A stretch of 64,000 nucleotides of DNA, taken from assembly GCA_022393335.1 (NCBI GenBank), contig JAJEKB010021191.1:828597-892596 (forward strand). The letters are read 5' to 3'. The stretch comes from Macrotrachela quadricornifera (Eukaryota > Rotifera > Eurotatoria > Philodinida > Philodinidae). Position 1 is the stretch's first letter. Each line of letters starts with the position of its first letter. The notes under the pieces were generated by a model. That model saw only the letters and a list, made by a program, of their open reading frames with translations, did not search any database and had not been told where the DNA came from. The position numbers were made by a program, and so were the translations under genes. This document shows, piece by piece, positions 12,139-60,909 of the stretch.

Positions 12139-15100
12139 CTAATCATTATCACTGTCCTCCTGTTCATCATCGCTGTTGCCCATGAAAATTGTGATATTTC
12201 TAGATTTTGCTCGACCTGGATGACTTACAAAGTCACGTATAATAAATTGAATAGCTTCATTACTTAAACATGTAACTAATGTTGATGCTTTAATACATAT
12301 TTCCACTGTAGAATCACTAATTCGATTACGTTGCCAAGTTTTGATTCGACGAAGTGTGGAAAATGATCGTTCAGCTTCATTGGAGCCAACCGCAAATGTA
12401 CCTAATACTTGGTATAGTTTATACCATTCGGAAGCTTGTTCTTGTCCATGTACAGCCAACTGTTGTAATATCGATTGAATTGAGTTTAAATCTTTTGGTA
12501 ATACCAAAAATGAATGAACATCATCCTTTAATCGATTGATGTTCAATAGAGGTGGATCATTTCTTTTGAATTTTTTTTTATCGACACTTGTATGTTCATA
12601 TGAAATTTCATTAGCATATGTATGAATTAAGCCGTTTCGAAGTAATTCATCAGGTGTCAGATTGGATGGCATCGATAACACAGCTAAATTTTCAATTAGT
12701 TCTTTAGCTTCTCTGTCGAATTTATTTGAAAATGAAGTCAAAACAGCAGATATCATTTCTTCCCCATCTTCTCGTAATTCATCTTCATTTAACTCTTCCG
12801 GAAAATTTACAGTTGAAACTTCGGTTGTTTTACGCCGTGTTGAATGAGCAGTAGCGTTGATTGTTGGTGCATATTGTTGTAAATCCTTCATTAAAGACTT
12901 AAATGTTTGGAAATCAAAATCTTGAGCAGTTTTACTAATAGAAGCAGTGGCCGCTTCTACATGTAACGAAAAATTATCCAAACAACATCCACGTGATTCG
13001 ATTTGACGAAGAAATTTCATAGATATTTTAAATATGTTTTTCAACATCATAATTTCAAATACTGTTTGATATTTTAATAAGACAAAAGTATATCGTTTGG
13101 CATCCGAAGAACCATCAATTTTTAATTGTGAAATTGTTGTGAGTGTTTGAATAATTGACAAATAATGTTTAACACCAAAACTAAGTATTTCGTAATTATA
13201 ACTCCATCTAATTTTCGATGCTTTTGGAACTGTATGTCCTAGGAAAGAAAAGAGAAAATATAAAATCAGATTGCGTCTAAACTCTAGAGAAAGAAGTTGA
13301 TACCTTTTTTGCTTGTACCATTTAATTTTTGGCTATTGAATAGAATCTCGAGACGTTGTGGACTATCACGAATGAATGATAATGCACTTTTTAGTGTATC
13401 AAAAGAATCGTGAAAATGGCTTTCTCCCGTTTCTTTCACAGCTAAGTTGAGAAGATGACTTCTACAATATATGTAAAATGCCCAGACTGATAATCGAGCT
13501 CGTACATGACCACTAGTTTGATATCTCATGCTTGATACGCCGTCATATGTTTGACCTGTTATAATGAATCGTTTGCCGGCGTCTTTTTCTAGTTGGTTGA
13601 GAAATTTCTCAATCATAATAAAAAATCCTGTAGGTGAAAGTGGTATGTTTCTACTATTCATTTGGTGAAAGTTACGTTTATTACTTTCTCCAGATGTGTC
13701 CGTAATGGGTTCAATTTTGAATAATTGTTCTTGTATTGTACCAGTATCTTTTTCAATATATCTTAAACATATGGAGACCATTTTTCGTACCGATATATCT
13801 TGTGTTTCATCAACTATTAGATTGATGTAATCGGTCTTTCGAATCGATGCCAGTTGCTGTTGGTATACATAAGTATTTATTGATAAAAGCCATTCAGAGA
13901 TTGCTTCTTTCCCCCAATATCTGAAAAAATAATAAATTTTTAAATCAGTTTTTCGGATGAAACTTAATTGTGGTACCTCTGTTTATTATTAGATAGATTC
14001 ATCCATTCTGCAACACCTGGACACTGCAGTCTGCCCAATAACTGTATCAACGATTTAAACTTGTTCATTGGCATTTCTTCAGTTAAAATATACCAGAATA
14101 TTTGAACTAACGTAGATAAATATTTTTCTGTTTGTTGTTGCAAATTACTACAATTTAATTGTCCAATGATATTCCCATTATCTTGAATATTCTTTGAAAG
14201 AACGCGACGCTCTCTTGACGAACGATGAAGATCACTTGATTCGTGTTTGCGAATACCTAAAAATGAAAAAAAAAATTTGTGAACCTTATGCTGAGTTGTA
14301 ATCGTTCATAAGAATGCTAACATACTCTCAATTCCCTTGTGTTTTAATTTCCAAAACGGGCGAACTACAAAAGCACCTCCATTTTTGGCAATTTTCACAC
14401 TATCGGAAGCAAATTCACTGCAGTAGGTGCAAAGCAATCCATAATTCCCATCCGAACAGATCGCCCTGAGCCACGGACGATCACGAGTAAACCATTGGCT
14501 GCTAGGTTTATGATGTAACTTAGCTTTTTGATATTCATCAATATTATTCGGATACCATTTAATGTTCGGATGCGCTGCACGTTGTTCATCAACAAAGTGT
14601 AACTCCTGGTTGTTAATAAATATAACACCTGGAAGAGGTTTTGGTGTTAAAATAGGGCGATCTGAATTCTGAATACCAGCTGTATTTAATTCCAAACAAT
14701 TATTAGTAGTACCAAAACTACAGTCATCTGTATTATTGATATTTCCGTTGTCAGAATCAGATGTTGTGTCCGAATGATCGTCATCGCTCTGTTGTTCTGC
14801 TCCTCGTCCTGTGTTATAAAAAAGATAAAATTGGAAACCCATTATTCTAACTAACTGTCAGAAATCATCGCTTACGAGGTGATAGTTGTAAATCAGCATC
14901 AATACTTTGCAATATATTCACTGTTGTTGGTGTAAATAAACGAGTATCTAGATTTTCTGGTTCACGATCAATTACTAAAAGGAAGTTTATGAAAAATATT
15001 ACTATATAATAAGGAAAATATTTGAATTATACTCTCTGTATTTGTACTCTCAAATTCAGTTGATAATGTTGTTGAACAATCAATTGGTGAAGGAACATCC

Positions 15101-26102: not shown

Positions 26103-27661
26103 TCGAATAGTGTACTGTTTGAAATATAAAAATGAAGTTTTATTTTGATTTTTTCTTTTTGAATATATATCTTATTATTTCATTTCGAAAAAAAGACGAA
26201 ATGCAGCCATTTAAATTCGTTAATAATTTGCATGTATTCTTTTAGAATTTTTACAATCGAAATCTCATTAGATGTTAATCGAAGCACTAGCAAAAGCTAA
26301 AGAAATGAGAAGGTAGGTGCGTGTATACATTTTATGAACAACAATTGAAACCATAAGGAGAATACTTCATTGATCTTTTCGGATAATGATCTTATCGAAA
26401 TTCATATTTTTTTTTATAAAATTTGATGTAGACACAAGATTGAAATGTTTTTTAATTGTTGAACTTATTATCAACTATCAAATATTATTCTCATTAGTTT
26501 CAAAATTAAAACAAATATCTACCGATAGTTGAATAAATTTTAACCCAAAAGAAAATTAACAAGTCATTTGACGAGCATATTTAGTGGACACGAAATAAAT
26601 TATTTTATCAGACAAATTTTAGAAATTCATATTGGAATTCTTTTATTAAAAATTATCGCTAATATTTTTTCAGCGATAATTAAGGTAAAAAATAGGTAGA
26701 AGAAAAAGAATTGCAAAATGACATGTCTTTATTTGTTTGAAGTCTGTCTGTTTCGTCTAAATAATACATTTTATAGTTAACATTGAAACAAGTTTTTCCA
26801 TCAGTACAGGATATTCTCTAATGACAAACTAAGCATTAACGTAAAAACTGGAACGAACGTCTCGCGTAGTCTAGTATTTCTCTACTTTAATTATATAGAA
26901 AAATTAATCAGTAAATTTCCTAAATTTATATCCATGCAAGTGTATTTCTCCTCCTTACACGCATATGATATAGATACAGACATGAATGACGTATCTTAAC
27001 TAAGTTTTTTAAAATATAGTCATCTTGTTTAATTACATCTATTAGATCACATGCATATATTTTAATTCTTTACTCATGTTCATGGAGTATTGATGTCATA
27101 ATAAGCATGAAAAAAAGTTGATAATAGAATTTAAAACTCATTCGACTAGTCAGATAAGATAGTCTTCCAGAAAAGTCGAGAAAAAGATAGAACAAAAAAA
27201 TAGTAAAGTGATTCTCTTTCTTCTCCAATATTTACCCCAGGAACTGTGAATAATCAACATAATTTTCAAAATGTTTGATTATAGTCATGGATTAGTTGGT
27301 TATAATCTCACATTCATTTCTCTTCTCCGTGTATTAAGGCCCTCTACGCTAATTTCTATTTTAGCTTCTGATTACCCAATCTTGCCGAAAATTTCAGAGA
27401 AGATATATCTCATGCTAGGTATCTCACAGTAAAAATTTCAGATCAGAATGTTGAGTCTACCAAGTTTTATCTCAAGGTTGCTAGTCAAAATGAAGATGTT
27501 CACATTTCGCAAATCTCACTGCTATCTCAAATGCTAGAAAGCTCGGGTTGATTTTAAAATATATCAAAGATTTATCACTACAACTTAACGGAGCCCCAAT
27601 TTTAATTTTCGTTTTTCATTTTTTTCAAGGAAGCGTATCTTATAGTGTGTGATAATGATAG
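26103..27661. other. gene-free stretch upstream of the lectin-receptor gene
   Basis: No supported gene. It should contain the promoter of the minus-strand gene that starts at 26102. The last five bases, GATAG (27657-27661), are the target duplication of the LTR element. Confidence 0.4.
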
Positions 27662-27864
27662 TGTGCCGATATCTATATATCATCTCTTATTGACCTCCTT
27701 CTAACCTTTAGCTAACTTTCATCTGACCTTCCTTTCTTCTACTCTCTTTCTCCTATCTCTATTGTTACTTTCTTGTGGATATATCTCTTTCGTGACCGAT
27801 GTATATATACGATGAAGATTGATGAAATAAAGGCAGTTGTGAAAGATACACGTTTGTTGTTACA
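27662..27864 (+). repeat. 5' LTR
   Basis: 203 bp, TG..CA. It contains a TATA-like GTATATATAC (27801-27810) and AATAAA (27826-27831), giving a very short candidate R region. It is identical by eye to 29622-29824. Confidence 0.92.
27801..27810 (+). promoter_or_regulatory. TATA-like box of the LTR promoter
   Basis: GTATATATAC within the LTR, upstream of AATAAA. The same copy in the 3' LTR is at 29761-29770. Assigned by position and composition only. Confidence 0.5.
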
Positions 27865-27878
27865 TGGCGACCCTGGCA
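27865..27878 (+). other. primer binding site of the LTR element
   Basis: TGGCGACCCTGGCA lies immediately 3' of the left LTR, the position and TGG start expected for pairing with the 3' end of a tRNA. I cannot name the tRNA. Confidence 0.65.
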
Positions 27879-28027
27879 AAACAAACCACGCACTTCTGAT
27901 CAAAAAAAAAGAAACAAATTTTTTTGGCAATCTGTCGATTATACATTTTGCAATTTCGATACCAATTCAAAGCTGGTCAATTAGTCAAGTTTAGAAGCGT
28001 TTATTCTTCTCAAATCAAAGACTTAAT

Positions 28028-29179
28028 ATGAATATATCCTTCGGAAAATTAAATGGTGTGTGTCTTGATTGTATTTATTTACACGCACATGTAATCAATA
28101 AATGTAAACACACAGTGTGTATGAACTGTTTATATGAAGCAATTGACAAAAAGATTGAACTTCAAAGAACGGTATTTGTATGTCCGCGATGCGAAAATTT
28201 TAATGAACATCAAACTCGTGTGGAACCAACGTCGAGTCAAGAATCAAATATAGATCAAGAAGAAAACGAATTAATCAAGCAGCTACCGAAATTAGAACAA
28301 GAAGAATTAAATGAACAACAAACACAACCAATACTGGCTTCGAACAATATTCATGAAAACTATTCAATATGGCCGGTTGGAACTGAATCGTGGCTGATCC
28401 ATGAAATTAAACCTCAAAGAGAAATTTTCGCCCGGGAAGAATGTGCAAAACAATCCATAATAAATCACACCACCGAAAATATGAATGATTGGTGCTCCCA
28501 ACAAACTTCAGAAGGTGATTTATCATGGCTTAAAGGAACAGAATCATGGCATGTTCATGAAATTAAACCACAACGCGATCGATTTAAAACTATACTCGCT
28601 CCGAAGACTGAAAGATCTGAAAAATTGGATGGTTCTAAAAATTTATTAGAAGCTTCAGCCCAGTATTCACCAGCTGAACAATTACCCCAAACTAATTCCA
28701 ACAGCGATCCTCCAACAAAATCAATGAAAATAAGAAACCTGGAATTTATTAGTGCTGAAGAAATTATTCTTCATAGTTTTGGTGAACTTCCACAATATGT
28801 ATCGAAGATGCTACAAGATCTAAACAAATCGAGTCCAAAATTACGGGTGCGACAATCACCAATTTGTTCTCGTCTCTCAACGACAAGAAAAATGTCAAAG
28901 AATCGCTCACTCATTCGTTTATTATGGCTAATTAGTCATGGCATTACTGCACTACTTACTTTCTTCTTGTTAATATTAATAAAAATAGGAATCTTATATG
29001 GTTCAACACCTGTCGCAAATAACTTTCATACTTTCTATCAAAAGCCACAATCGATACTAAATAGTTACACGATGCCATCGATTTCCATAACACAGCATCC
29101 TACGAAATTCCTGATCGACAAAAATATAATTGAAAAAGTTCGAAACCTCGAATCTCTATGGATTTATGCTATTACGTAA
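28028..29179 (+). CDS. RING-finger transmembrane protein inside the LTR element
   Basis: A 383-residue single-exon ORF, the only long one between the LTRs. The N-terminus is a textbook C3HC4 RING: C12-x2-C15, C26-x-H28, C31-x2-C34, C52-x2-C55, suggesting E3 ubiquitin-ligase activity. A Glu/Gln-rich linker follows. Next are two copies of a motif, GTESWLIHEIKPQR (from about residue 118) and GTESWHVHEIKPQR (from about 170), each followed by a charged stretch. About residues 295-325 form one hydrophobic segment (LLWLISHGITALLTFFLLIL), so the product is probably a membrane-anchored RING protein. There is no zinc knuckle, protease or RT motif. It could be a captured host gene, a strongly diverged element-specific protein, or an accessory ORF that counters host silencing. 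All three are inference. The frame is intact. Confidence 0.8.
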   Translation: MNISFGKLNGVCLDCIYLHAHVINKCKHTVCMNCLYEAIDKKIELQRTVFVCPRCENFNEHQTRVEPTSSQESNIDQEENELIKQLPKLEQEELNEQQTQPILASNNIHENYSIWPVGTESWLIHEIKPQREIFAREECAKQSIINHTTENMNDWCSQQTSEGDLSWLKGTESWHVHEIKPQRDRFKTILAPKTERSEKLDGSKNLLEASAQYSPAEQLPQTNSNSDPPTKSMKIRNLEFISAEEIILHSFGELPQYVSKMLQDLNKSSPKLRVRQSPICSRLSTTRKMSKNRSLIRLLWLISHGITALLTFFLLILIKIGILYGSTPVANNFHTFYQKPQSILNSYTMPSISITQHPTKFLIDKNIIEKVRNLESLWIYAIT

Positions 29180-29621
29180 CATGACTTTTTACTTCGAATA
29201 TTTCTTTCGGACTTTTGGCCTTCAGATTTCGTTTGGTTATCATGTTTATTTTTCTCCGTTCAATTCTTGTTCAAAAAGCAAATGCTTAACTCTGAATTAT
29301 ATTTCGTATTAATCGCGTTGCTGTCTGTTTAATTTTTTCTTTTTGTTGTTTTGCTGTGTCTAGAGTATTTTGTGTTATAACTTCTCTAAATATGACTTGC
29401 TTCACATATACGGTCGATCTTTTCCTTACACATAGACTTATGGTGTTCTTCTTATTCGTTTGTTTTCATGTATTACAATATTGTTCTCATAATCTGTTTT
29501 GTTATTGTACACGTATGAAACCGAGACAATGTAGCTCATGGTGGAGGCTACCAGTTTCTATTCATGCCGTAAAATGGCATATGGCAGACGCTCAGGAGCG
29601 CGTCTAAACTGAGTGGGAGGG

Positions 29622-29824
29622 TGTGCCGATATCTATATATCATCTCTTATTGACCTCCTTCTAACCTTTAGCTAACTTTCATCTGACCTTCCTTTCTTCT
29701 ACTCTCTTTCTCCTATCTCTATTGTTACTTTCTTGTGGATATATCTCTTTCGTGACCGATGTATATATACGATGAAGATTGATGAAATAAAGGCAGTTGT
29801 GAAAGATACACGTTTGTTGTTACA
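29622..29824 (+). repeat. 3' LTR
   Basis: Copy of 27662-27864, preceded by the polypurine tract at 29611-29621 and followed by the target duplication GATAG. Confidence 0.92.
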
Positions 29825-29829
29825 GATAG

Positions 29830-30979
29830 GGCGTGTATTGTGATACATTTGAAGAGTTCATGAGGTATTTGATTTGACGGCAAATTCAAACAAAACAGTA
29901 TTTTTAACCAATATCAGCGAAGATAGACAATATTTATTATGATGACAGTCTAATCCACACAGCAAGAAGATCTATATAATAATTTTACTATCTATGTGGT
30001 ATAATACTGTATATCATTTAAACGCTTCATCCGTTGGTTACGATGATTTGAAACGTTTTCAGTGCTTGTGGTATTGGGATGGTGGTAGGGGCAAGATAAA
30101 GGCAATACCGTTTATAGTTGCAGTTATTAATATTTTTAAAAGTAAATGGTTTTGCTACAAAATCAAATTCTCCATCATATGCAGTTTCATCTACAATTAT
30201 AAAGATCTTATTTGAACTTATAACTTTTTCTAATCAGATTACATATAAATTTGAACAAGTATAAATACTACTATAAGCACAATACACAAAACAATACGAG
30301 ACATAATTTCACGCGCAAATTTAAAAATTTTCGAGGCGATCTAGAACATTATGAAGAAAGAAACAAAGTACTGTGAATATTTATACGACCATTTGTATTG
30401 CATCAGATATATGCAAAACAATATGTTGTTTTATTTTTGTACGAATATTGAGGCATCTGATACATCAAGTTAAATAAATTATACAGGTAGGTCTTGTGAA
30501 AGTGAGTTACATAAATAAGATTAAAATTAAAGAAGGAGACGAAGCACCGCCGATATACATAAAATGTTCGGATTATATGTATTGATTTAGTTCGAAGTGG
30601 TTTAAATTAATCTGTGTACTTTTAATGCACTGTTAAAATTTAAAATATCAACATTTTTCTAGTTGTAAAAAACTAATACTCATCTATTGTTCGACATTTA
30701 TTGAAAGATTAACATCAAGACATTAACATTCATATCACTTTTATTTTATTCTACACTGAATACAGCGTATATTTAAATGAATCTAATCAAGTCCATCCAG
30801 TTATTTCTACAATATTCTTTTAGTCGGATCAGTAGGAAATCAGTCACAAAATTTACGGTTTAATTCTGTTTGTAAAATAGTTTATTAACTTATACTCATG
30901 ATAAAACTTTTATTTTTGTAGCATATCTTAAATTGAAAAACTTTCCGTAAAGGAAAATAAGTTACAATCAGAAAATTAA
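29830..30979. other. gene-free stretch
   Basis: No supported gene. The short frame at 29994-30215 has no recognisable domain. The end nearest 30979 should hold the 3' end of the transcript of the large minus-strand gene. Confidence 0.4.
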
Positions 30980-33900
30980 TCAATCAGTTCGTGCCATTAC
31001 CTTCTTGATACTAGCTTTGATATCGTCTAAAGTATATTGATCGTATGCAACTGGCACTGGTGGATTAGGCTTGATTCTATAATATCGAGCTATATCATTG
31101 TGATATTTACTCATTAAAAATTCCCCTAAGTGAATTTCTCGAACTTGACTATGAGGAATTTCATATTCAAGTAACGCTGGAAAATCTGTATATGGATGAA
31201 ATGGTCCATCATTATTAAGACTAAATTGATAATCTCGAAGCTTACTCTCATAACACGTTTCATGTACAATAAGATGAGTATCATGCCATTTAAATCCTGC
31301 TAATCCTGCCGGTTGATGATGAAAATCGTGATGTCCTGAATGATTATGATGCTTGAAACATGGTGCACCACATAATCTACAAGCATGATTACATCGAGGT
31401 CTTTCATTATCGGTAGAAGGATTGTCTCTCAATCGTTTTAAAATGATTTCACTTTCATTTCCGTTTAACAAAGATTTTGGTGATTTTGGAACAATGGCTG
31501 ATTGAACTTTACTAACAACACCATCAAAAATATTTCTTGGTTGATCATCAACATTTCCATAAATCTCTGTTGTTTTTGGTAAACGCGATCTAATCGCAGA
31601 TGGTAATGGTTGTGCAAGCAATATTTTAAGAAAAGTATTCAAACAATCTTTTGGGCTATTCCTAGCGTCATCTCCTGCTTTTTTAATTGAATCATTTAAA
31701 AGTTTATGATATGCCGGCCATTTTTCTTTAGTGTACTTGTCAACATAAATTTGAACAAATTTTTTCATGCATTTCTCATGAAATGCACTAGCAGAATTAA
31801 TTTCATCCAATAGTTTATCAATTCCTTCTTTTTCTAATATTTGTACTTTTTCATTATCAATGTAAGCACTAAGAATATCACTATTTCCAATCCAACGTTG
31901 TTGAGCAACCTCTGTTTTAACATCTTCTAGAAGAACTTCAATAAACCCATCTCTCCATGTACTTTTTATTTCATTATACAATTCTAATTCAAATAGTTTT
32001 ATACCTCGAATACCTTTAGCCACATTTAAAAAAAAATACAACAATACTTGACGATTATCTTCTAAAAGTTTTGTACGATTATGTTTTTCATCCCATTGAT
32101 TTTGTAAACGAATTAATTGATCACTTAGATAACAATATGTACTACGATGAATATCTTTAATTGTATCACCCACAATAACTGACCGTTCATTTATTGCTTG
32201 TTGTAAACGTTGTAACACTTCATTGACAATCAACGAATCATATCGATCATTATTACTAATTAAATTATCAATATATAATTTAATATCATTGACAGTTTCA
32301 TTATATTTTTGATTTTCATCTATATATCGATGTCTACGAGATGATCGTTCATGTTCAGATTGAAAGTTTTGAATATGTGTTAATTCATCTTCATCTTTTA
32401 CTGATCGTTTAAAATGACCATTTTCATTACAAAATTCCTTATCATCGAATATTTTAACATTTTCAATAACTATACTTCGATTATAAACATTTTTTATTTC
32501 TTCTCTAACATCAACAATTCCTGTATGATAAGGTTCTTGAAATTCTTGCATACGATTTTTGAGAGTATCATTAAAAATTTGTTCACGTTGTGTGCTATCT
32601 AAATTCATACAATTTATTTGATCACATTTTAGAATAAAATCGTAACGAATTTTTTCTGCAACTTTCTCAACAAAAAATGAAATTGCTATTTCACGATCGA
32701 TTTTTGTTGCTAAAGATTTTCGATTACGAACTTTTTTCTCTTGAATAAACAGTATCCAATCAGTTTCAAATGAAGCTTGACGTTTACTATTTTTAATTAA
32801 TTCAAATATTTTTTTTTGTGCATTTAAAATTGTTTCTTGCATTTCATTTAAAACCATCGTATGTGCTTCATTAATAATATTTTCAATAATATCAAATGAT
32901 AGCTTTAAAATTGAAAGTTTATTTGATGAACTTGTATATTTTTGAATAATTTCATTTTCAATTCGAGTTCGAATTGTTGTAAAATTTAATGAAACATTAT
33001 ATTTTATACTTTCAATTTGTTCTTTTAATCTATTATTTGCTAACATTTCTAATGATGTACTAACACCTGTTATATGTGGAGCTTGACGAATTGTATGACT
33101 AACTGCTTTTATATATTCAAATATATCAGAAATAGATCGTGCTTTCCATGGACGTATATCATTTGTTTCTGTAATTCGATAATCAATCCGTTGTCTTAAT
33201 CGAAGACATTCTTCACCAAATAAATCAACTGGATGATTAATTGGTGGATGATTTGTATTAGTTGATAATATTCGAAAATCTGAATTTGTTAAATTGTCTA
33301 AATCTAATCGATATTGTCCAAAACCATGAAATGTCATATTTTTCAATGCAATACCTTCATGTATTCGATTTGTAACATTATGTAATCGTGTTATTAAATC
33401 TTGTAATAATTCTGTTCCTTTATCTTGTTGTCCTGGATCAATTTGGTTGTAAACAAAAAATAATTTTGATGGCATTTGTCCACCTAATTGCATTGATAAT
33501 GCACTTGTTGCATAGAGATATAATACAATCGGTAAAACTTCTTCTAATGCTTGATTAACTTCTCCTTTATTTAATAAAATCGTTCCATCTGCAGGTAAAA
33601 CAGCAAATGTTGCTAAAGTATTATCTCTCATATCAGCATCGGGTAAAAAGCTAAATTCAGGTGCTCGAAGTCCTTCAGTATCAAGTAACAATATATAATC
33701 ATATTCTTGATAAAGAACTTTGATTAACATTGCATTTACTCCTTGAGTACAAGCACCAACACTACTTCGAATACGTATTCCATACATTGTTTTTAATAAA
33801 GTCGATTTTCCCGAACTTTGTGGACCACAAATTGATAGAACTAAAACACGAGCTTGTCGATCAAGTTCTTGATATAATTTTTTATTTAATGAATCAAAAA

Positions 33901-36900
33901 CATCTTCAATCCATTTTAAATTTAAAAGCATAGAATCACCATCAAGAAGTTCTAATGGAAATCCATCAATTAAATGTTGGGCAGCTAAATCTGGAAGAGT
34001 ATAATATAAAGTTTTATTTGTTACATATAAATGTGATATTTCACGCCAAAAATGATCAATATTTAATGATGCATCAATTAAATCTTGTTTAGCTTGATAA
34101 TGTTTCTGAATTGCTTTTATTTGTTTCTCTTTAAAAGATAAATAATTTGTATGATTTTCTTTTATATTAAGAATATCTTGTGTTGCTTGTGTCATTTCAA
34201 TAAATTTTCTATCTCGTTTTTTTCGTAATGGTGCAATTGTTCTTTCATTTAATTCTGTTAAAGCATGTTCAAATTGACGTTTTTGTATATAACGTTGTTC
34301 ATCATTTATTTCAGCAATAAGTGTACAATAATATTTTAATATTGGAATTTCACTAATAGTCTTTTGTAATTGAAAACGTTGAAATCTTTCTTGACGAATA
34401 TTATTTTCTAATTTTTTTCGACGATTATCATTTAATTGTAATATTGGATCATCTAATTGTAGTTGAGATTTAGCTTCTATATTATAGCTATGTTGAAATT
34501 TAAATTGATTTTTTCTCAAATCTTTCGTATCGATATTTTTGAATAGATTGTCTATATTAAGTAATGGTATATCATCATCAATAAATAATTCAGTGTTTTT
34601 AATAATATCTGCTAAACGAGGTCGAATTGAAACTGATGAATGAAGATAAGTTTTTGAATGAGAAATTTCTAATAAATCTTTTTGTAATGTATGAATTACT
34701 GCTTTACTACTTCCTTCGTATATATTCATCGCAAATGGTTCTTGTAATTCAATAACTTCATCAAAATCAGCATCAATTGTATGCTTCCATATAATTATAT
34801 TTGGAACACGTAAAGACTTATATAAATCATCATATTTGAATTCAGCAAAATTTGAATTATCTTCATTATATTCGACAATTAATACATCAATATATTGTAC
34901 AAGAAATGATAATAATGGTTGAAAATTGCCAATGATATGTGTTAGTATAATTGGTTGATAAGATAGAGAAGATTTTGTATCAGGTAAAAAACCATATCCA
35001 ATTTCTGCTACTGTCTCTGCTTTAATACCTATTCCTGTTCCTGGTATTGATTGTCGAATAGAAAATGTTTGAAAAAGATTTTCTATTAAATCAGGTAATC
35101 CACCAATTTTTTTTTGATTGGTTGAAATCAATCCAATACGTAATAATTTTGAATCTAAAGCTAGAAAATTTTCTTGTGATTGTAAAACAGGAACATCAAC
35201 TAAACTTAATGTTCTAATATAAGAACGAAATGGAGGTGATACGCCATTTATATTTGATACCAATATTGGTACTAACATTCGTTGTTCTAATTGAAGTTTC
35301 ATTAATTCCATTCGTGCATCTATACCATATGTTTCATAAATTATTAAGCATGCATCATAAACACTTGTTACATTCAATAGCATTTTTTTCTTAATCTCAA
35401 TTTTTGTATTCATTTTTGTTATACCAGTTCGATATTTAATAGCGGATAGAAATTTTCGGATTATATCATTTGTTAATATTGAATTTAATATTTCGGGTGT
35501 AGCTGGAGGTACTGCAATCATATTCGTATAACTTGCACCGGAACGAAATTGTTCATATAAATGAGTAGAAAAATGAAATGGTAATGGAATAATCACAGGA
35601 TGATTTGAAGTTTTTATATATTCATTTGATTCTGATGATGAAAGTAAATTTGATAAAGTTTGTGCTTGTATAAATTCTGATGTTTTTTTATTACATTGTC
35701 TTAAATCCATAATATATGATGATATTGAATGATTTTGAAATATTTTATCTGTTTTACTTGAAAGTTGAAGAGTTTCATGTAAATTTTCATTTAAAGCTTC
35801 GATATTAATGACATTGATTAAATGCCATGTTTGATCATATTTACGGAAGGTAATTAGATTATATATACCTATTGGTCGATAGATTAATTGTGGAATTGAA
35901 TCTTCGTGTAAATATTTGCCAATAAAATCAAGTGATTTTTTAAATAAATCTAATGCTGTATCAACTACAATAGGTTCGCATAGTTTTGAAGAAACTGATG
36001 AATAATAAGTAGTTAAACTATGACATAACCAAGTTAATAAATGTTTAAGATGAGATCTACTCGGTGAAATTTTACTTTCCCCGACTGAGAAGTAACTTGT
36101 GAAAGTAGACCATATACTTGGTTCTGCCGTTATTACTTCATTTTTTTCTAATATTAATACTGACTGAGATAAAAGTTCAGCCATATTAAATAAAGATGGT
36201 ATAATATCCATTTCATGATAAATATTAATAAAATGTTTTTTTAAACCACGATTTTCAATATAATCAATTATTGGTTTTCGAGCAAAAAATAATGCACCTA
36301 AAGTAATACTTCGAAATTGAGTATAATGTAAATTACTTTCTTTTGATAATATATGTAATGTTGATAATTGTGCAATAGTACCACCAAATCCATGACCACA
36401 TAAAACAATTCGTACATTTGAATGTTGTCGAAGTAATTGTTGAAAAATAACAAGAGGTAACATATCAATAATAGATAAAAACGATGGATCAATATCATAA
36501 CGATAAGATAAAGTATCTGGATTATTCAATGGTATATTTGATTTTTGTTCAAAATTTTGAAAAAAATTTAATAATAAATCATTTTCAGGATAAGATGGAA
36601 ATGTTAAATAAAATGTTATTATTGAATTACATTCTTCGATTATTTTAAACTTTTGATCAATATCATCTAGAATTTCACTAGAACTTTTATTCCAATCAAT
36701 TGATATATAATGTAATTGCTTTCCATTATCAACATCGAATTGATCATCGATTTTTTCAATATGATTGTCATTTTGATCAATAGTAGATCCAAGAAGAAAA
36801 GTATAATTATTGTGATATTGAGTAAATGAATGTAAATGTCCCTTGTATAGATATGAATATGGAAGGTATCTCAACAAATAATCTTTTACAGACATCTTTA

Positions 36901-37075
36901 TATCAGCACTATCGATATATGATTGCATAAACATAGTACACATGTCAGTATCTTTAGACATATAATTGTTATCGAATAATTCAAAATCTGGTCGACGGCA
37001 AAAGTCATTGAAAACATATGCAGGTAAAAATAGAAGTATAACAAAGAAAATTGATAATCGATTTGAAATTTTCAT
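30980..37075 (-). CDS. VLIG/GVIN-type giant GTPase fused to a secreted lipase-like domain
   Basis: One uninterrupted 2031-codon exon. The N-terminus is a signal peptide (RLSIFFVILLFLPAYVF). Next comes a class-3-lipase-like region with the elbow GHGFGG (about 226-231), where the catalytic Ser is Gly. The acid-type motif YHEMDIIP (about 284-291) is still present, so it looks like a pseudoenzyme. Residues about 850-1060 are a charged coiled-coil linker. The GTPase domain has G1 GPQSSGKST (about 1083-1091), a candidate switch segment SSVGACTQGV, G3 DTEGLRAPE (about 1131) and G4-like NQID (about 1210), as in very large inducible GTPases and URGCP. A helical region follows, then a C-terminal Cys/His cluster (CNHACRLCGAPC, HHNHSGHHDFHH) from about 1890. 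Known VLIGs are cytosolic and interferon-induced in vertebrates. A signal peptide on one is odd and would place it in or beyond the ER. Confidence 0.85.
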   Translation of the reverse strand: MKISNRLSIFFVILLFLPAYVFNDFCRRPDFELFDNNYMSKDTDMCTMFMQSYIDSADIKMSVKDYLLRYLPYSYLYKGHLHSFTQYHNNYTFLLGSTIDQNDNHIEKIDDQFDVDNGKQLHYISIDWNKSSSEILDDIDQKFKIIEECNSIITFYLTFPSYPENDLLLNFFQNFEQKSNIPLNNPDTLSYRYDIDPSFLSIIDMLPLVIFQQLLRQHSNVRIVLCGHGFGGTIAQLSTLHILSKESNLHYTQFRSITLGALFFARKPIIDYIENRGLKKHFINIYHEMDIIPSLFNMAELLSQSVLILEKNEVITAEPSIWSTFTSYFSVGESKISPSRSHLKHLLTWLCHSLTTYYSSVSSKLCEPIVVDTALDLFKKSLDFIGKYLHEDSIPQLIYRPIGIYNLITFRKYDQTWHLINVINIEALNENLHETLQLSSKTDKIFQNHSISSYIMDLRQCNKKTSEFIQAQTLSNLLSSSESNEYIKTSNHPVIIPLPFHFSTHLYEQFRSGASYTNMIAVPPATPEILNSILTNDIIRKFLSAIKYRTGITKMNTKIEIKKKMLLNVTSVYDACLIIYETYGIDARMELMKLQLEQRMLVPILVSNINGVSPPFRSYIRTLSLVDVPVLQSQENFLALDSKLLRIGLISTNQKKIGGLPDLIENLFQTFSIRQSIPGTGIGIKAETVAEIGYGFLPDTKSSLSYQPIILTHIIGNFQPLLSFLVQYIDVLIVEYNEDNSNFAEFKYDDLYKSLRVPNIIIWKHTIDADFDEVIELQEPFAMNIYEGSSKAVIHTLQKDLLEISHSKTYLHSSVSIRPRLADIIKNTELFIDDDIPLLNIDNLFKNIDTKDLRKNQFKFQHSYNIEAKSQLQLDDPILQLNDNRRKKLENNIRQERFQRFQLQKTISEIPILKYYCTLIAEINDEQRYIQKRQFEHALTELNERTIAPLRKKRDRKFIEMTQATQDILNIKENHTNYLSFKEKQIKAIQKHYQAKQDLIDASLNIDHFWREISHLYVTNKTLYYTLPDLAAQHLIDGFPLELLDGDSMLLNLKWIEDVFDSLNKKLYQELDRQARVLVLSICGPQSSGKSTLLKTMYGIRIRSSVGACTQGVNAMLIKVLYQEYDYILLLDTEGLRAPEFSFLPDADMRDNTLATFAVLPADGTILLNKGEVNQALEEVLPIVLYLYATSALSMQLGGQMPSKLFFVYNQIDPGQQDKGTELLQDLITRLHNVTNRIHEGIALKNMTFHGFGQYRLDLDNLTNSDFRILSTNTNHPPINHPVDLFGEECLRLRQRIDYRITETNDIRPWKARSISDIFEYIKAVSHTIRQAPHITGVSTSLEMLANNRLKEQIESIKYNVSLNFTTIRTRIENEIIQKYTSSSNKLSILKLSFDIIENIINEAHTMVLNEMQETILNAQKKIFELIKNSKRQASFETDWILFIQEKKVRNRKSLATKIDREIAISFFVEKVAEKIRYDFILKCDQINCMNLDSTQREQIFNDTLKNRMQEFQEPYHTGIVDVREEIKNVYNRSIVIENVKIFDDKEFCNENGHFKRSVKDEDELTHIQNFQSEHERSSRRHRYIDENQKYNETVNDIKLYIDNLISNNDRYDSLIVNEVLQRLQQAINERSVIVGDTIKDIHRSTYCYLSDQLIRLQNQWDEKHNRTKLLEDNRQVLLYFFLNVAKGIRGIKLFELELYNEIKSTWRDGFIEVLLEDVKTEVAQQRWIGNSDILSAYIDNEKVQILEKEGIDKLLDEINSASAFHEKCMKKFVQIYVDKYTKEKWPAYHKLLNDSIKKAGDDARNSPKDCLNTFLKILLAQPLPSAIRSRLPKTTEIYGNVDDQPRNIFDGVVSKVQSAIVPKSPKSLLNGNESEIILKRLRDNPSTDNERPRCNHACRLCGAPCFKHHNHSGHHDFHHQPAGLAGFKWHDTHLIVHETCYESKLRDYQFSLNNDGPFHPYTDFPALLEYEIPHSQVREIHLGEFLMSKYHNDIARYYRIKPNPPVPVAYDQYTLDDIKASIKKVMARTD

Positions 37076-38718
37076 TCTATGATAAAGTCTAAAAAAAATT
37101 CTGTCACCACTTTAAAAGAATATTATTATTTGTGTTGCTCGACATATATGTTCCTATATATAGCTATGAATAGATAAGAGACGTAAAAAACCCAAAAACG
37201 TAATAAAAATGAAATACTTGGCTTGGAATATACACCTTTAAACAAAGGAATTAACCAATGTTACAAGAACAAGATCTGATAAGAAAAAAGAAGAGTAACA
37301 AAACCGACCAGTCACATTTAAAAGCATGTTACAAACAGTCCAAAATAATGGCTACAACTACATAAACAATCTTATATGCTTATATTATCTGACTACTAAA
37401 TTTAGCGAGCATAGTATTCTATTGCACCATATACAACGACATACGCCATGTGTTTTTAAATGTATATTCTTATCGATGAAATACTTTCCAGCTTTTTATA
37501 TATGACAGACTTGTGCAGAAAAAAGAACAGGTTATAGCTACTACTCATATGAGCCGAAAGAGCATCTGCATTCGTTTATCATAGATTTGAGAGTTAGCAT
37601 CGAAAGTAGTTATATTTCCTACAAAAATATGTGTAGATATCTTCTAATAGAAATGAACTACCAGCATTACCTTAAATGGATGTCAACAACTATTTACCAT
37701 GATGATATCTGTCATTAAGGCTTATAAAATATGCCAAAAATACTAAAAGTAAAGTTCTAACATTCTCATGATTCAACCACAGTGCTCGTTATTTCTACAA
37801 CTTTTATGTGTTTACAAAAATTTACTGTATTATTTTTTTTACTATTCGAACTATAGGAAATAGCCATTCATTTCATCTAACATTATATTTATTCGAGTTA
37901 CATGATAAGAAATTTAACTCTTTCTCGTCACTTTATAGTTATTTATACAAATGTGGTGGCCGAATGATAGAATTATGTAGAATGTGTGATGTATTAGGTA
38001 GAGTAAATTAATCATACAGAGCTATGGTGTTTTTGAAATATCGCAGTCCACTTTGTTGAAAAAATTAGTGTGCAACAAAATATACTCTCAATTTTAGTGT
38101 TTACTTATATACATAAAATACCATATCGATTTTACATAACTGATGGCGTTATAGCAGTGTTGATTCAGCATAGAAATCTGCTTGATAGTTTCCGTTTATA
38201 ACGTTGTTGCGCTGCGAAAGCCTTTTTTTGGATAACAGAAAGAAAAAAAATAGAAGCATGAGAAGAATTATAGCATCGTTTAACATAAAATATCTTCGAA
38301 CTATTTTTTTCTATTATTATTATGTCATAGAAAATTAACTTCCTGATTTTCTATATCTACGTTGTCTTGACATTTATCAATAAGTAAAAGGAATACGAAT
38401 TTCAAGTGTAAATTCTGAGAGAACTTGACTCATCCATTACTTTCCTTATTAAAAAACTTCAGATTTTATTTTCAATTTGGAAACCATGTTTCACAGATTG
38501 ATTTTGATCATATGAAAGTCTCATTTTCTACACCATTCTATGTACTTGAAAAGAAATTGTTTTTTGTTGTGATAAAATATGTCATAGAAATTCATCAGTA
38601 GCAGCCATTTGTACTATATCATATGCATTTGATCAATTAACAATTTGTACAGATTCTGTCGATAAAAGTATATCAACTTAAAAATAATAACATTTACAAA
38701 AATGTTAAACCATCAATA
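37076..38718. other. gene-free stretch upstream of the giant GTPase
   Basis: No supported gene. It should contain the promoter of the minus-strand GTPase gene. Open frames such as 37808-38011 show no domain. Confidence 0.4.
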
Positions 38719-58801: not shown

Positions 58802-60468
58802 AAAAATTCAGAAATATTTAACATTTCATTTTCTATAACTAACTTAAATAAATGCTTATGAAATTTGTTCGTGTAGAATAAAACCTGATGCATCCGCCTA
58901 TCAATTAAAAAAAATAAGTTCATGAAACTAAAGAAAATAGTAAAGATAAACGAAAAATATAAAATGGAAGGGACTTTTGGAACATCCGATAGAATGAAAC
59001 AAGAATAAAGTGATTTAACCTACATAGAACTATTGTAGAAAGTAAAAAGAATTATTCTTGTCATTTATGAACATGTAAACACTTTCGGACCGTTCTTCAG
59101 ATCAGTGTTACTTGTGTTTGGCTTGCAATCGACTGATCATGGGTTCGAATCTAAGTTCAATCTATGAAATAAAAAAACTTCACCCTGTTGCTCACTGTAT
59201 CTGAGTGTTATACCATGACTTCCTATGGTGTAATAAACACGTCTACACGCTCGAAAATATGGTTATATAGAAAATTCTATACTGAATAGTAGTATTTTCA
59301 AAAAGATCATTGGAAAAAAAAGTAAGGCTTTCATTGAAAGTATTAAGTTTACACCGACTTTCCATTTTCGAAATGCGGAATTGACAGCACTCCTACCAAA
59401 TTCTCACTTTCAATCTTGACGGTTTCTGATCTTCGAAGTGATTTTTATGTTTCGCATTCTTGCTATCGTATTCCTCTATTATGATTATTCAAATTTATTT
59501 GTAATTGAGATTCAACGTCGATAATATAACTTCCTATTTCTGTTTTTTATTGATATGCATGTTTACTAGTTTGATTATTATTATTAAAATATTTCAAAAT
59601 GAATCAGCAGAAGAATTCTAATACGATGTAGTACCTTTTTTCACATAATGATCACTATGCAATTTCTTTCAAAGGATATCACATATCAAGAAAGTTTTAA
59701 AATATGTATTATATTTCTCCTCTAAATAAAGAACAATGCTTTTTTTTGTAGAAGAATATTCGTAACGACAAAGAAAATTTAATATTTTTTACAAAAAACT
59801 TGAAAGTATTGTATATTCTTTTTGTTTTTGCATAAACATTTAATTTCACTTGCTTTCTATGGTTTACTATTACTTTAACACTTTAAAAAAGAACATAAAA
59901 TTTCACTTTATCGTCTTGCTTTTTTCGTTTTATTAAAAGAAAATTGTCGTTAAGAGTAAGAAACAACAAGCATTGTCGTCATCTTTGAAATGTGCATAAG
60001 AAGAAAATATTTTATGAGACATTTTAATAGTATTTTATCACGTTTCGACAGATCTTCATCAGTAACAAAGTGGAAGTTTGCTGAGCTAAGTCTGTATGCT
60101 GTTCTCTTTTTGTACATTCATAGTTACGTAACAAACAGAAAATTGATTCACAATTTTATCGTATCTATGGAATATAAATAGAGATACTGCAACTCATGTA
60201 AAAATTTATATAAATTAAACAATTAAAAAAGATGCTTTTTATCGAAATCCAACAAGTTATTTCAGATTGATTTGATTTTAACAAGAAATAATATATAAGA
60301 CTTCGTTAAAATACATATTTTTAACACGTTCTCATGGTAAAAAAGTAATGTTAAATTTATATAATTTTACAAGAGAAGACTAAGTTAAAATTTATTTCTA
60401 TTAAATTCGTAACAATAAATTTTTTAGTAGAAATCTTTCTTTTTGAATTTGATTTAGAAATAACACAA
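58802..60468. other. gene-free stretch
   Basis: No supported gene. A GGTTCGAATC word near 59150 recalls a tRNA B box but no tRNA fold can be built. The end next to 60469 should contain the promoter of the E2 gene. Confidence 0.35.
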
Positions 60469-60909
60469 ATGGCCTTAGCATGCATCATGAAAGAATTGAA
60501 AGATATAAAAGAAGATACATCAGAATATATTAATGCAAGACCATATCATCCTGACAATATATTTTGTTGGCAAGCTACAATATTGGGTCCTCCTGGTACT
60601 CCTTATCAAGGAGGTCGTTTCTTTCTTGATATAAGCTTTCCAATAAACTATCCGATCAAACGGGCAAATTTTAAATTTACCACAAAAATATTTCATCCAA
60701 ATGTATATTCAAATGGTAATGTATGCATGGAAATTCATGGAAATCAACGGATTCTCACAATCTCCAAACTATTATTATCAATTTGTTCACTGTTGAGCGA
60801 TCCAAATACCGATGATCCAGCTAATCCTGAAGCTGCACATTTTTATCGATTTGATCGTGATAAATATAATAAAATTGCACGTCAGTGGACAAGAAAGTAT
60901 GCTATGTGA
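60469..60909 (+). CDS. UBE2D-like ubiquitin-conjugating enzyme E2
   Basis: 146 residues in one exon, close to the usual 147 of the UBE2D/effete group. The UBC fold landmarks are present: WQATILGPPGTPYQGG, the HPN motif (76-78), the active-site Cys86 in GNVCMEI, LTISKLLLSICSLLSDPN and the C-terminus WTRKYAM. It should accept ubiquitin from E1 and pass it on with a RING or HECT E3. It differs from canonical members just after the Cys: that loop is two residues shorter and lacks the conserved Trp-Ser-Pro. It also has a one-residue insertion near the N-terminus, so it is a diverged paralogue. The absence of introns in a region of intron-rich genes suggests a retrocopy, though the frame is intact. 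Confidence 0.9.
   Translation: MALACIMKELKDIKEDTSEYINARPYHPDNIFCWQATILGPPGTPYQGGRFFLDISFPINYPIKRANFKFTTKIFHPNVYSNGNVCMEIHGNQRILTISKLLLSICSLLSDPNTDDPANPEAAHFYRFDRDKYNKIARQWTRKYAM

What the first reader, a model, noticed from the sequence alone, without database searches (positions are those of the whole stretch)
27662..29824. A very young LTR retrotransposon whose only gene is a RING-finger membrane protein
The sequence shows two identical-looking 203-bp TG..CA LTRs, a 5-bp target duplication GATAG, a primer-binding-site-like sequence and a polypurine tract. Between them is a 383-codon ORF with a perfect C3HC4 RING, a doubled GTESW..HEIKPQR motif and one transmembrane segment. There is no gag or pol. 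A parasite-like vehicle that spreads a ubiquitin-ligase-type gene would be unusual. It may be a captured host gene, or an accessory protein that blocks host silencing.
Basis: partly seen in the sequence, partly recalled or inferred. Interest (0 to 1): 0.88.

Follow-up and report, generated by a model that had tools for sequence, protein, structure and literature searches.

The report
Satellite LTR retrotransposon carrying RING protein
In what is probably a bdelloid rotifer genome, a small jumping element with no machinery of its own carries a single RING-finger membrane protein gene, and appears to be copied by a larger retrovirus-like element that has nearly the same ends.

Summary
Window 27662-29824 is a complete non-autonomous LTR element: LTRs 203/203 identical, TG..CA, TSD GATAG. 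Paralogous empty sites run across the junction with a single GATAG. The genome (450 Mb) holds a second complete copy with its own TSD (L010), two probably allelic 3' halves at contig ends and two decayed copies at one site. The ORF belongs to a family that, where a species is named (13 of 30 proteins), is bdelloid. Its C-terminal module (WPxGTESWxxHEIKPQR, often a TM segment, LRxLESLLIYAI tail) has different heads: RING, Gag or coiled coil. Decayed Gag-headed relatives sit between unrelated LTRs here. RING, motifs and tail are better conserved than linkers, but dN/dS between the two intact copies is uninformative (0.66, p=0.42). Best reading: a satellite of an env-bearing LTR element with a modular accessory protein. 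What the protein does is inferred.

The parts
27657..27661 (+). target site duplication GATAG, left copy
   Evidence: single copy in paralogous empty sites L048 and L049
27662..27864 (+). 5' LTR, 203 bp, TG..CA
   Evidence: 203/203 identical to the 3' LTR; 200/203 to each LTR of the partner
27826..27831 (+). AATAAA in the LTR, possible polyadenylation signal
   Evidence: read in the sequence; function not tested
27865..27880 (+). primer binding site region TGGCGACCCTGGCAAA
   Evidence: directly after the LTR; same 16 bases in the partner. An Arg-type tRNA is recalled, not confirmed
28028..29179 (+). ORF, 383 aa: RING, two GTESW-HEIKPQR motifs, TM segment, conserved tail
   Evidence: homologues; stop-free in second copy L010
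28061..28192 (+). C3HC4 RING, residues 12-55
   Evidence: same 44-aa length in 7 of the 30 proteins
28364..28420 (+). motif 1, residues 113-131, SIWPVGTESWLIHEIKPQR
   Evidence: 12 invariant columns in a 12-sequence alignment; coordinates checked
28520..28576 (+). motif 2, residues 165-183, LSWLKGTESWHVHEIKPQR
   Evidence: 13-16 of 19 residues kept in 4 of 5 homologues compared, absent in P0002
28940..28996 (+). single transmembrane segment, about residues 305-323
   Evidence: hydropathy 2.45; predicted helix 293-319, the best block (mean pLDDT 72 at 301-310) of a poor model
29120..29176 (+). conserved C-terminal tail KNIIEKVRNLESLWIYAIT
29586..29621 (+). 36 bp before the 3' LTR, identical in the partner, ending in the polypurine tract GAGTGGGAGGG
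   Evidence: no special fold (z -0.23)
29622..29824 (+). 3' LTR, 203 bp
29825..29829 (+). target site duplication GATAG, right copy

Best explanation
The element is a satellite of an env-bearing gypsy/retrovirus-like LTR retrotransposon (TelKA-like by layout), probably in a bdelloid rotifer. Shown: matching ends, PBS and PPT region with a partner that has gag and pol; several copies; a precise insertion with a 5-bp duplication; identical LTRs. Inferred: its RNA starts and ends in its LTRs, is packaged and reverse transcribed by the partner's Gag and Pol, and is inserted by the partner's integrase. Its only product is a membrane-anchored RING protein whose RING most likely faces the cytosol, because positive charges crowd on the N-terminal side of the TM segment (6 Lys/Arg in the 25 residues before it, 1 in the 25 after). 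It belongs to an accessory family in which one C-terminal module (GTESW-HEIKPQR motifs, often a TM segment, conserved tail) is paired with interchangeable heads. Proposed job (about 35% likely, inference): the module brings the head to the membrane where partner particles form, through contact of the GTESW-HEIKPQR motif with a partner or host protein. A Gag head would enter the particle directly; a RING head would act as a clustering or ubiquitin-ligase device that favours the satellite or removes a host restriction factor. The confidence below is for the satellite part.
For: LTR, TSD, PBS and PPT. Empty sites. Partner L009:809-8752: LTR pair identical, TSD GTACT, three base differences to our LTR, same 16-bp PBS region and same 36 bp before the 3' LTR; gag with PF03732 (and zf-CCHC at 20.4 bits, just under its cut-off of 20.8), pol with RT, RNase H and integrase, and a 584-aa third frame with a C-terminal TM. 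Second complete copy L010, TSD ATCTA, ORF stop-free, 96% aa identity; 3' halves L013/L014, with 2 substitutions and 1 indel in 1,185 bp for L013; decayed copies L011/L012 at one shared site. Family in bdelloids: 13 of 30 proteins bear a species name, all Rotaria or Adineta. Rotaria magnacalcarata prediction P0007 joins a gag core 63% identical to the partner's gag to a sequence 48% identical to RING-type P0003 from mid-RING onward. Second LTR family with Gag-headed module: L039 and L040, TSD GTTTC for L040. Conservation against P0001: RING 35/44, motifs 16/19 and 15/19, tail 14/19, long linker 29/107. Charge bias around the TM segment.
Against: Trans-mobilisation and every protein function are inferred. 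dN/dS between the two intact copies is 0.66 with Fisher p 0.42 (6 synonymous, 15 replacement changes), so recent selection is not shown. The structure prediction is poor (pLDDT 38) and RING models score under their cut-offs. P0002 lacks the second motif. No LTRs could be looked for around the homologues P0001-P0036, because their contigs were not available. Some Gag-RING fusions are database gene predictions of unknown exon structure.
Confidence: 0.8

Rival explanations
1. Neutral passenger. A host RING gene was captured by chance between LTRs, as host gene pieces were in maize Bs1, and its protein does nothing for the element.
For: dN/dS between the two intact copies is not different from 1. 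Older copies L011 and L012 have stops. RING plus coiled-coil frames without the module exist in the same genome (L036, L037), with RINGs 23/44 and 22/44 identical to ours.
Against: Long relatives P0001, P0003 and P0004 (31-52% identity) keep all RING ligands, both motifs and the tail; P0002 keeps the RING and one motif. The module occurs in a second LTR family and next to a gag like the partner's in R. magnacalcarata.
Confidence: 0.15
2. Env substitute. The TM protein serves cell exit or entry of partner particles, as proposed in print for small TM-bearing ORF3s of bdelloid LTR elements.
For: One TM segment and a conserved tail; the 2017 paper describes small TM ORF3s as possibly env-like.
Against: No N-terminal hydrophobic segment in the window ORF, a RING at the N terminus, and the partner already has a 584-aa third frame with a C-terminal TM.
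Confidence: 0.15
3. Host defence gene family (interference with retroelements, as with Gag-derived restriction factors) that LTR elements have picked up.
For: Gag-headed and RING-headed forms resemble restriction-factor designs (recalled); a stop-free RING plus coiled-coil frame with no direct repeats within its 3.3-kb locus stands at L036.
Against: Both complete module-bearing copies read in this genome (window, L010) lie between LTRs, as do the decayed Gag-headed copies L039 and L040. L043 and L038 have no LTR pair established.
Confidence: 0.15
4. Blocker of host small-RNA silencing or another antiviral factor, acting as a ubiquitin ligase.
For: RING with complete ligands. Small RNAs map to ORF3s of A. 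vaga LTR elements (PMC5408684).
Against: No target or ligase activity shown; a TM anchor places it at a membrane (inference).
Confidence: 0.2

Closest known systems
TelKA LTR retrotransposons of bdelloid rotifers and the non-autonomous TelKA2n (Rodriguez et al. 2017, PMC5408684; abstract and Results read)
   Same: Bdelloid host group; partner has gag, pol and a third ORF with TM, TG..CA LTRs in the 159-551 bp range; a non-autonomous derivative that keeps an ORF3 is reported.
   Different: TelKA2n lacks the end of gag and most of pol but has env. Here everything between PBS and the last 36 bp is replaced, and the ORF is RING-TM. The paper's main text has 0 occurrences of 'RING', 'ubiquitin' or 'zinc finger'.
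TR-GAG elements of plants (definition seen in passages of PMC6022998)
   Same: Gag-headed module copies L039 and L040 are small LTR elements with a gag-like ORF and no pol seen between their repeats.
   Different: The window element has no gag; its head is a RING.
Maize Bs1 and other LTR elements with captured host genes (review PMC13317346, passages)
   Same: LTR element that carries a non-retroviral coding segment, possibly gained by template switching or read-through.
   Different: Here a complete ORF of its own family recurs with swapped heads in bdelloid sequences and in two LTR families.
Defective oncogene-carrying retroviruses that need a helper (recalled, no call)
   Same: Helper-dependent LTR genome whose internal genes are replaced by one other gene.
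   Different: Genomic satellite in an invertebrate, old protein family, no oncogene.

Membership tests
Non-autonomous LTR retrotransposon | Two LTRs with TG..CA, TSD, PBS, PPT | tested here: met
Non-autonomous LTR retrotransposon | No gag or pol, partner with gag and pol and matching ends | tested here: met
Non-autonomous LTR retrotransposon | Mobilised in trans | not testable with these tools
   Only copies and matching ends seen; no RNA or particle data
TelKA (for the partner) | gag-pol-third ORF order, TG..CA LTR | tested here: met
TelKA (for the partner) | Paramyxovirus-like fusion protein as env | tested here: inconclusive
   No Pfam fusion-protein hit and no meaningful solved-structure hit; C-terminal TM only. 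The paper used HHpred, not available here
TelKA (for the partner) | dUTPase between protease and RT | tested here: inconclusive
   No dUTPase hit in pol with Pfam
TelKA (for the partner) | RT places it in the TelKA clade | not tested
   No reference TelKA sequences at hand
TR-GAG | Only a gag (or gag and protease) domain between LTRs | tested here: not met
   Window ORF has no gag hit; L039/L040 are Gag-headed by resemblance to P0026, itself a weak gag hit (E 0.033)
TRIM or LARD | No coding domain | tested here: not met
   383-codon ORF with homologues
RING-type E3 ligase | Eight C3HC4 ligands with RING spacing | tested here: met
   0 of 20,000 shuffles
RING-type E3 ligase | Passes curated RING profile cut-off | tested here: not met
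   17.8 bits against 30 for the best model; P0001, P0003 and P0004 also under cut-off
RING-type E3 ligase | RING fold | tested here: inconclusive
   Block means under 50 across the RING
RING-type E3 ligase | E2 binding and ubiquitin transfer | not testable with these tools
   Needs a bench assay

The most novel reading that the evidence does not exclude
Bdelloid rotifers host a guild of LTR satellites whose members all carry one accessory protein family: a fixed membrane module (GTESW-HEIKPQR, TM, LESLLIYAI tail) on swappable heads (RING, Gag, coiled coil). The element-borne, ubiquitin-ligase-like head gives the satellite an edge over, or a grip on, an env-bearing helper, so that these are invertebrate retroelement counterparts of helper-dependent satellite viruses that bring a gene of their own.
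Probability: 0.4. Interest if true: 0.78.

Novelty: new variant of a known kind. Interest (0 to 1): 0.6.

Why it matters
Gag/pol-less LTR elements described so far (as far as the passages and my recall go) carry no gene, a gag, or pieces of host genes. A satellite that carries its own conserved accessory protein, with a clear partner in the same genome, makes it possible to ask what a retroelement parasite gains from coding for a RING protein, and how modules move between retroelement families in animals thought to be anciently asexual.

Tried and rejected
Viral contigs (19 pattern matches, none confirmed) and bacterial/archaeal genome contigs (10 pattern matches, none confirmed) gave no relatives of the protein. 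Solved structures gave no meaningful match for the ORF or for the partner's third frame. The structure model is too poor to interpret, so no fold search was made. A first tRNA pattern was mis-spaced and gave 0 matches; the corrected one did not complete, so the primer tRNA is unconfirmed. The 36-bp shared stretch has no unusual fold. Copy number of the partner was not obtained: the search with its third frame did not complete. Assembly duplication was rejected. The idea that the whole ORF is one captured host gene was dropped because its parts have different partners. My first RING search pattern was too narrow and missed every RING; it was mended.

Full report
What is there. Window 27662-29824 is a complete LTR element of 2,163 bp. 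The two 203-bp LTRs are identical, start TG, end CA, and are flanked by GATAG. The insertion lies in an older repeat. A search with the two flanks joined gave 62 matches from 40 scored of 202 candidates, among them the two flanks themselves and short inverted pieces; many of the long matches run straight across the junction. The two that were aligned (L048 at 85%, L049 at 86%) have a single GATAG and no insertion. This shows precise insertion of this unit and speaks against an assembly duplication.

Copies. A DNA search of the window's own genome (450,031,034 bases, 5,695 contigs; counts are lower bounds) gave 29 matches. They are: the element itself; a second complete copy on C4980 (L010, 2,133 bp, LTR pair identical at 188/188, TSD ATCTA); 3' halves at the ends of C560 and C561 (99.6% alike over 4 kb, so probably two alleles); three pieces of two decayed copies on C4463 and C4635 whose flanks match, hence one old insertion; the two LTRs of a partner on C4901; and 20 matches to the LTR or its edge. 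I fetched 14 of those 20. None of the 14 has gag, pol, third-frame or RING sequence in the fetched stretch at E 1e-5. By my reading of the 13 whose LTR ends were printed, 8 have a perfect 5-bp duplication (L015, L016, L017, L019, L024, L025, L027, and L026 if its last LTR base is taken as mutated; L019 and L027 share flanks); L020, L021 and L023 do not, and L018 and L022 are cut at one LTR end. So at least 8 of the 14 look like solo LTRs.

Partner. L009:809-8752 (minus strand; 7,944 bp) has identical LTRs, each with 3 differences from ours in 203 bases, TSD GTACT, the same 16 bases after the 5' LTR and the same 36 bp before the 3' LTR. It has stop-free frames of 446 aa (Retrotrans_gag E 2.2e-13; zf-CCHC just under its cut-off), 1,287 aa (RT E 1.6e-39, RNase H, integrase) and 584 aa. 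The 584-aa frame ends in a strong TM segment but matches no Pfam fusion protein. The layout fits TelKA as described in PMC5408684 (Results read); a bdelloid insertion called most likely TelKA, with Pol and Env, is mentioned in PMC7943196 (passages only). TelKA membership itself was not tested by a tree.

The protein. A search of 5.8 billion proteins found 11 relatives with the single sequence and 30 with an alignment. A species name is given for 13 of the 30 and is a bdelloid each time: Rotaria magnacalcarata, R. socialis, Rotaria sp. Silwood1, Adineta steineri, A. ricciae. A complete RING is present in 7 of the 30 (P0001-P0004, P0013-P0015), always 44 residues long. Several others are partial, so 7 is a floor. 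Of the 16 proteins with the tail pattern, 12 have a TM-like segment. The C-terminal module follows other heads: a gag domain in P0007, P0010 and P0011 (precomputed PF03732) and weakly in P0026 (E 0.033) and P0028 (E 0.02); coiled-coil-like heads in P0017 and P0027 (my reading). P0007 has a gag core 63% identical over 180 aa to the partner's gag, followed by a sequence 48% identical over 120 aa to the RING-type P0003, starting in mid-RING. So in another bdelloid the same kind of ORF stands next to the same kind of gag, as predicted genes go.

A second carrier. A protein search of the own genome gave 17 matches. L039 and L040 hold the module with a gag-like head (similar to P0026) between direct repeats of 146 bp (97%) and 203 bp (91%). 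L040 has GTTTC on both sides and L039 has TGGTGCCGTGACCC next to its first repeat, a different primer site from the window element (my reading). Their frames are broken. L043 is a further copy without an LTR pair established. L036/L037, on two contigs 95% alike, hold a RING followed by a coiled-coil-like stretch, with no module; no direct repeats were found in the 3.3-kb locus L036. Six relatives of that protein were found. The RING head is therefore probably of a host-type family (inference); the module was met only in bdelloid-named or unnamed sequences.

Selection. Against P0001, identity is 35/44 in the RING, 16/19 and 15/19 in the motifs, 14/19 in the tail and 29/107 in the long linker; P0003, P0004 and P0013 also keep the motifs best. 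P0002 lacks the second motif. This points to constraint over long times. Between the two intact copies there are 6 synonymous and 15 replacement differences, ratio 0.66, Fisher p 0.42: no evidence of recent constraint, and none against it.

A mosaic. Window copy and L010 differ at 28 of 350 sites in LTR plus 5' leader but at 27 of 1,594 in ORF plus 3' leader (p 1.8e-8). The non-coding 5' and 3' leaders alone differ in the same sense (14/162 against 6/442, p 5e-5). Selection on the ORF cannot explain the low 3' leader figure. Template switching between co-packaged RNAs would, and fits a satellite; gene conversion is an alternative.

Mechanism and limits. Helper use is inferred from matching ends, absence of gag and pol, and several copies. 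There are 6 Lys/Arg in the 25 residues before the hydrophobic segment and 1 in the 25 after, so the RING probably faces the cytosol. The best guess is a membrane-anchored accessory protein that acts where partner particles assemble; ligase activity, target and benefit to the element are unknown.

Print. Searches for 'bdelloid, LTR retrotransposons, ORF3' (4 of 4 listed), 'LTR retrotransposon, RING finger, non-autonomous, additional ORF' (20 of 26 listed), 'TelKA, rotifer' (2 of 2), 'retrotransposon, RING finger, rotifer, ubiquitin ligase, LTR' (15 of 78 listed), 'bdelloid, retrotransposon, RING finger' (5 of 5) and 'Terminons, bdelloid, zinc' (1 of 1) listed no title or abstract opening describing such an element. 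PMC5408684 has no 'RING' in its main text, nor has PMC7943196. The library lacks most subscription papers, so this does not show that the element is undescribed.

Noticed in passing
window 30983-37111 (-): A 2,043-codon stop-free frame with a class 3 lipase domain (E 1.3e-9) and a URGCP-like large GTPase domain (E 1.2e-49), a pairing that struck me as unusual.
   Followed up: no
window 12142-13982 (-): Weak hAT transposase traces (Dimer_Tnp_hAT, DUF4371, both under cut-off).
   Followed up: no
window 60355-60906 (+): A ubiquitin-conjugating enzyme domain (UQ_con, E 1.4e-40).
   Followed up: no
window about 27334-27661 and 29825-29853: The element sits inside an older repeat with dozens of matches in the genome, many with a short inverted piece beside the match.
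   Followed up: partly
L023:4797-4850: An LTR is followed by an inverted primer site and what looks like the end of another LTR; that primer site reads TGGCGACCCTGGCAGAATTCA, a longer possible tRNA complement than in the window element.
   Followed up: partly
L020 and L021; L019 and L027: Pairs of LTR loci with near-identical flanks, so probably shared old insertions on homologous or duplicated segments.
   Followed up: no
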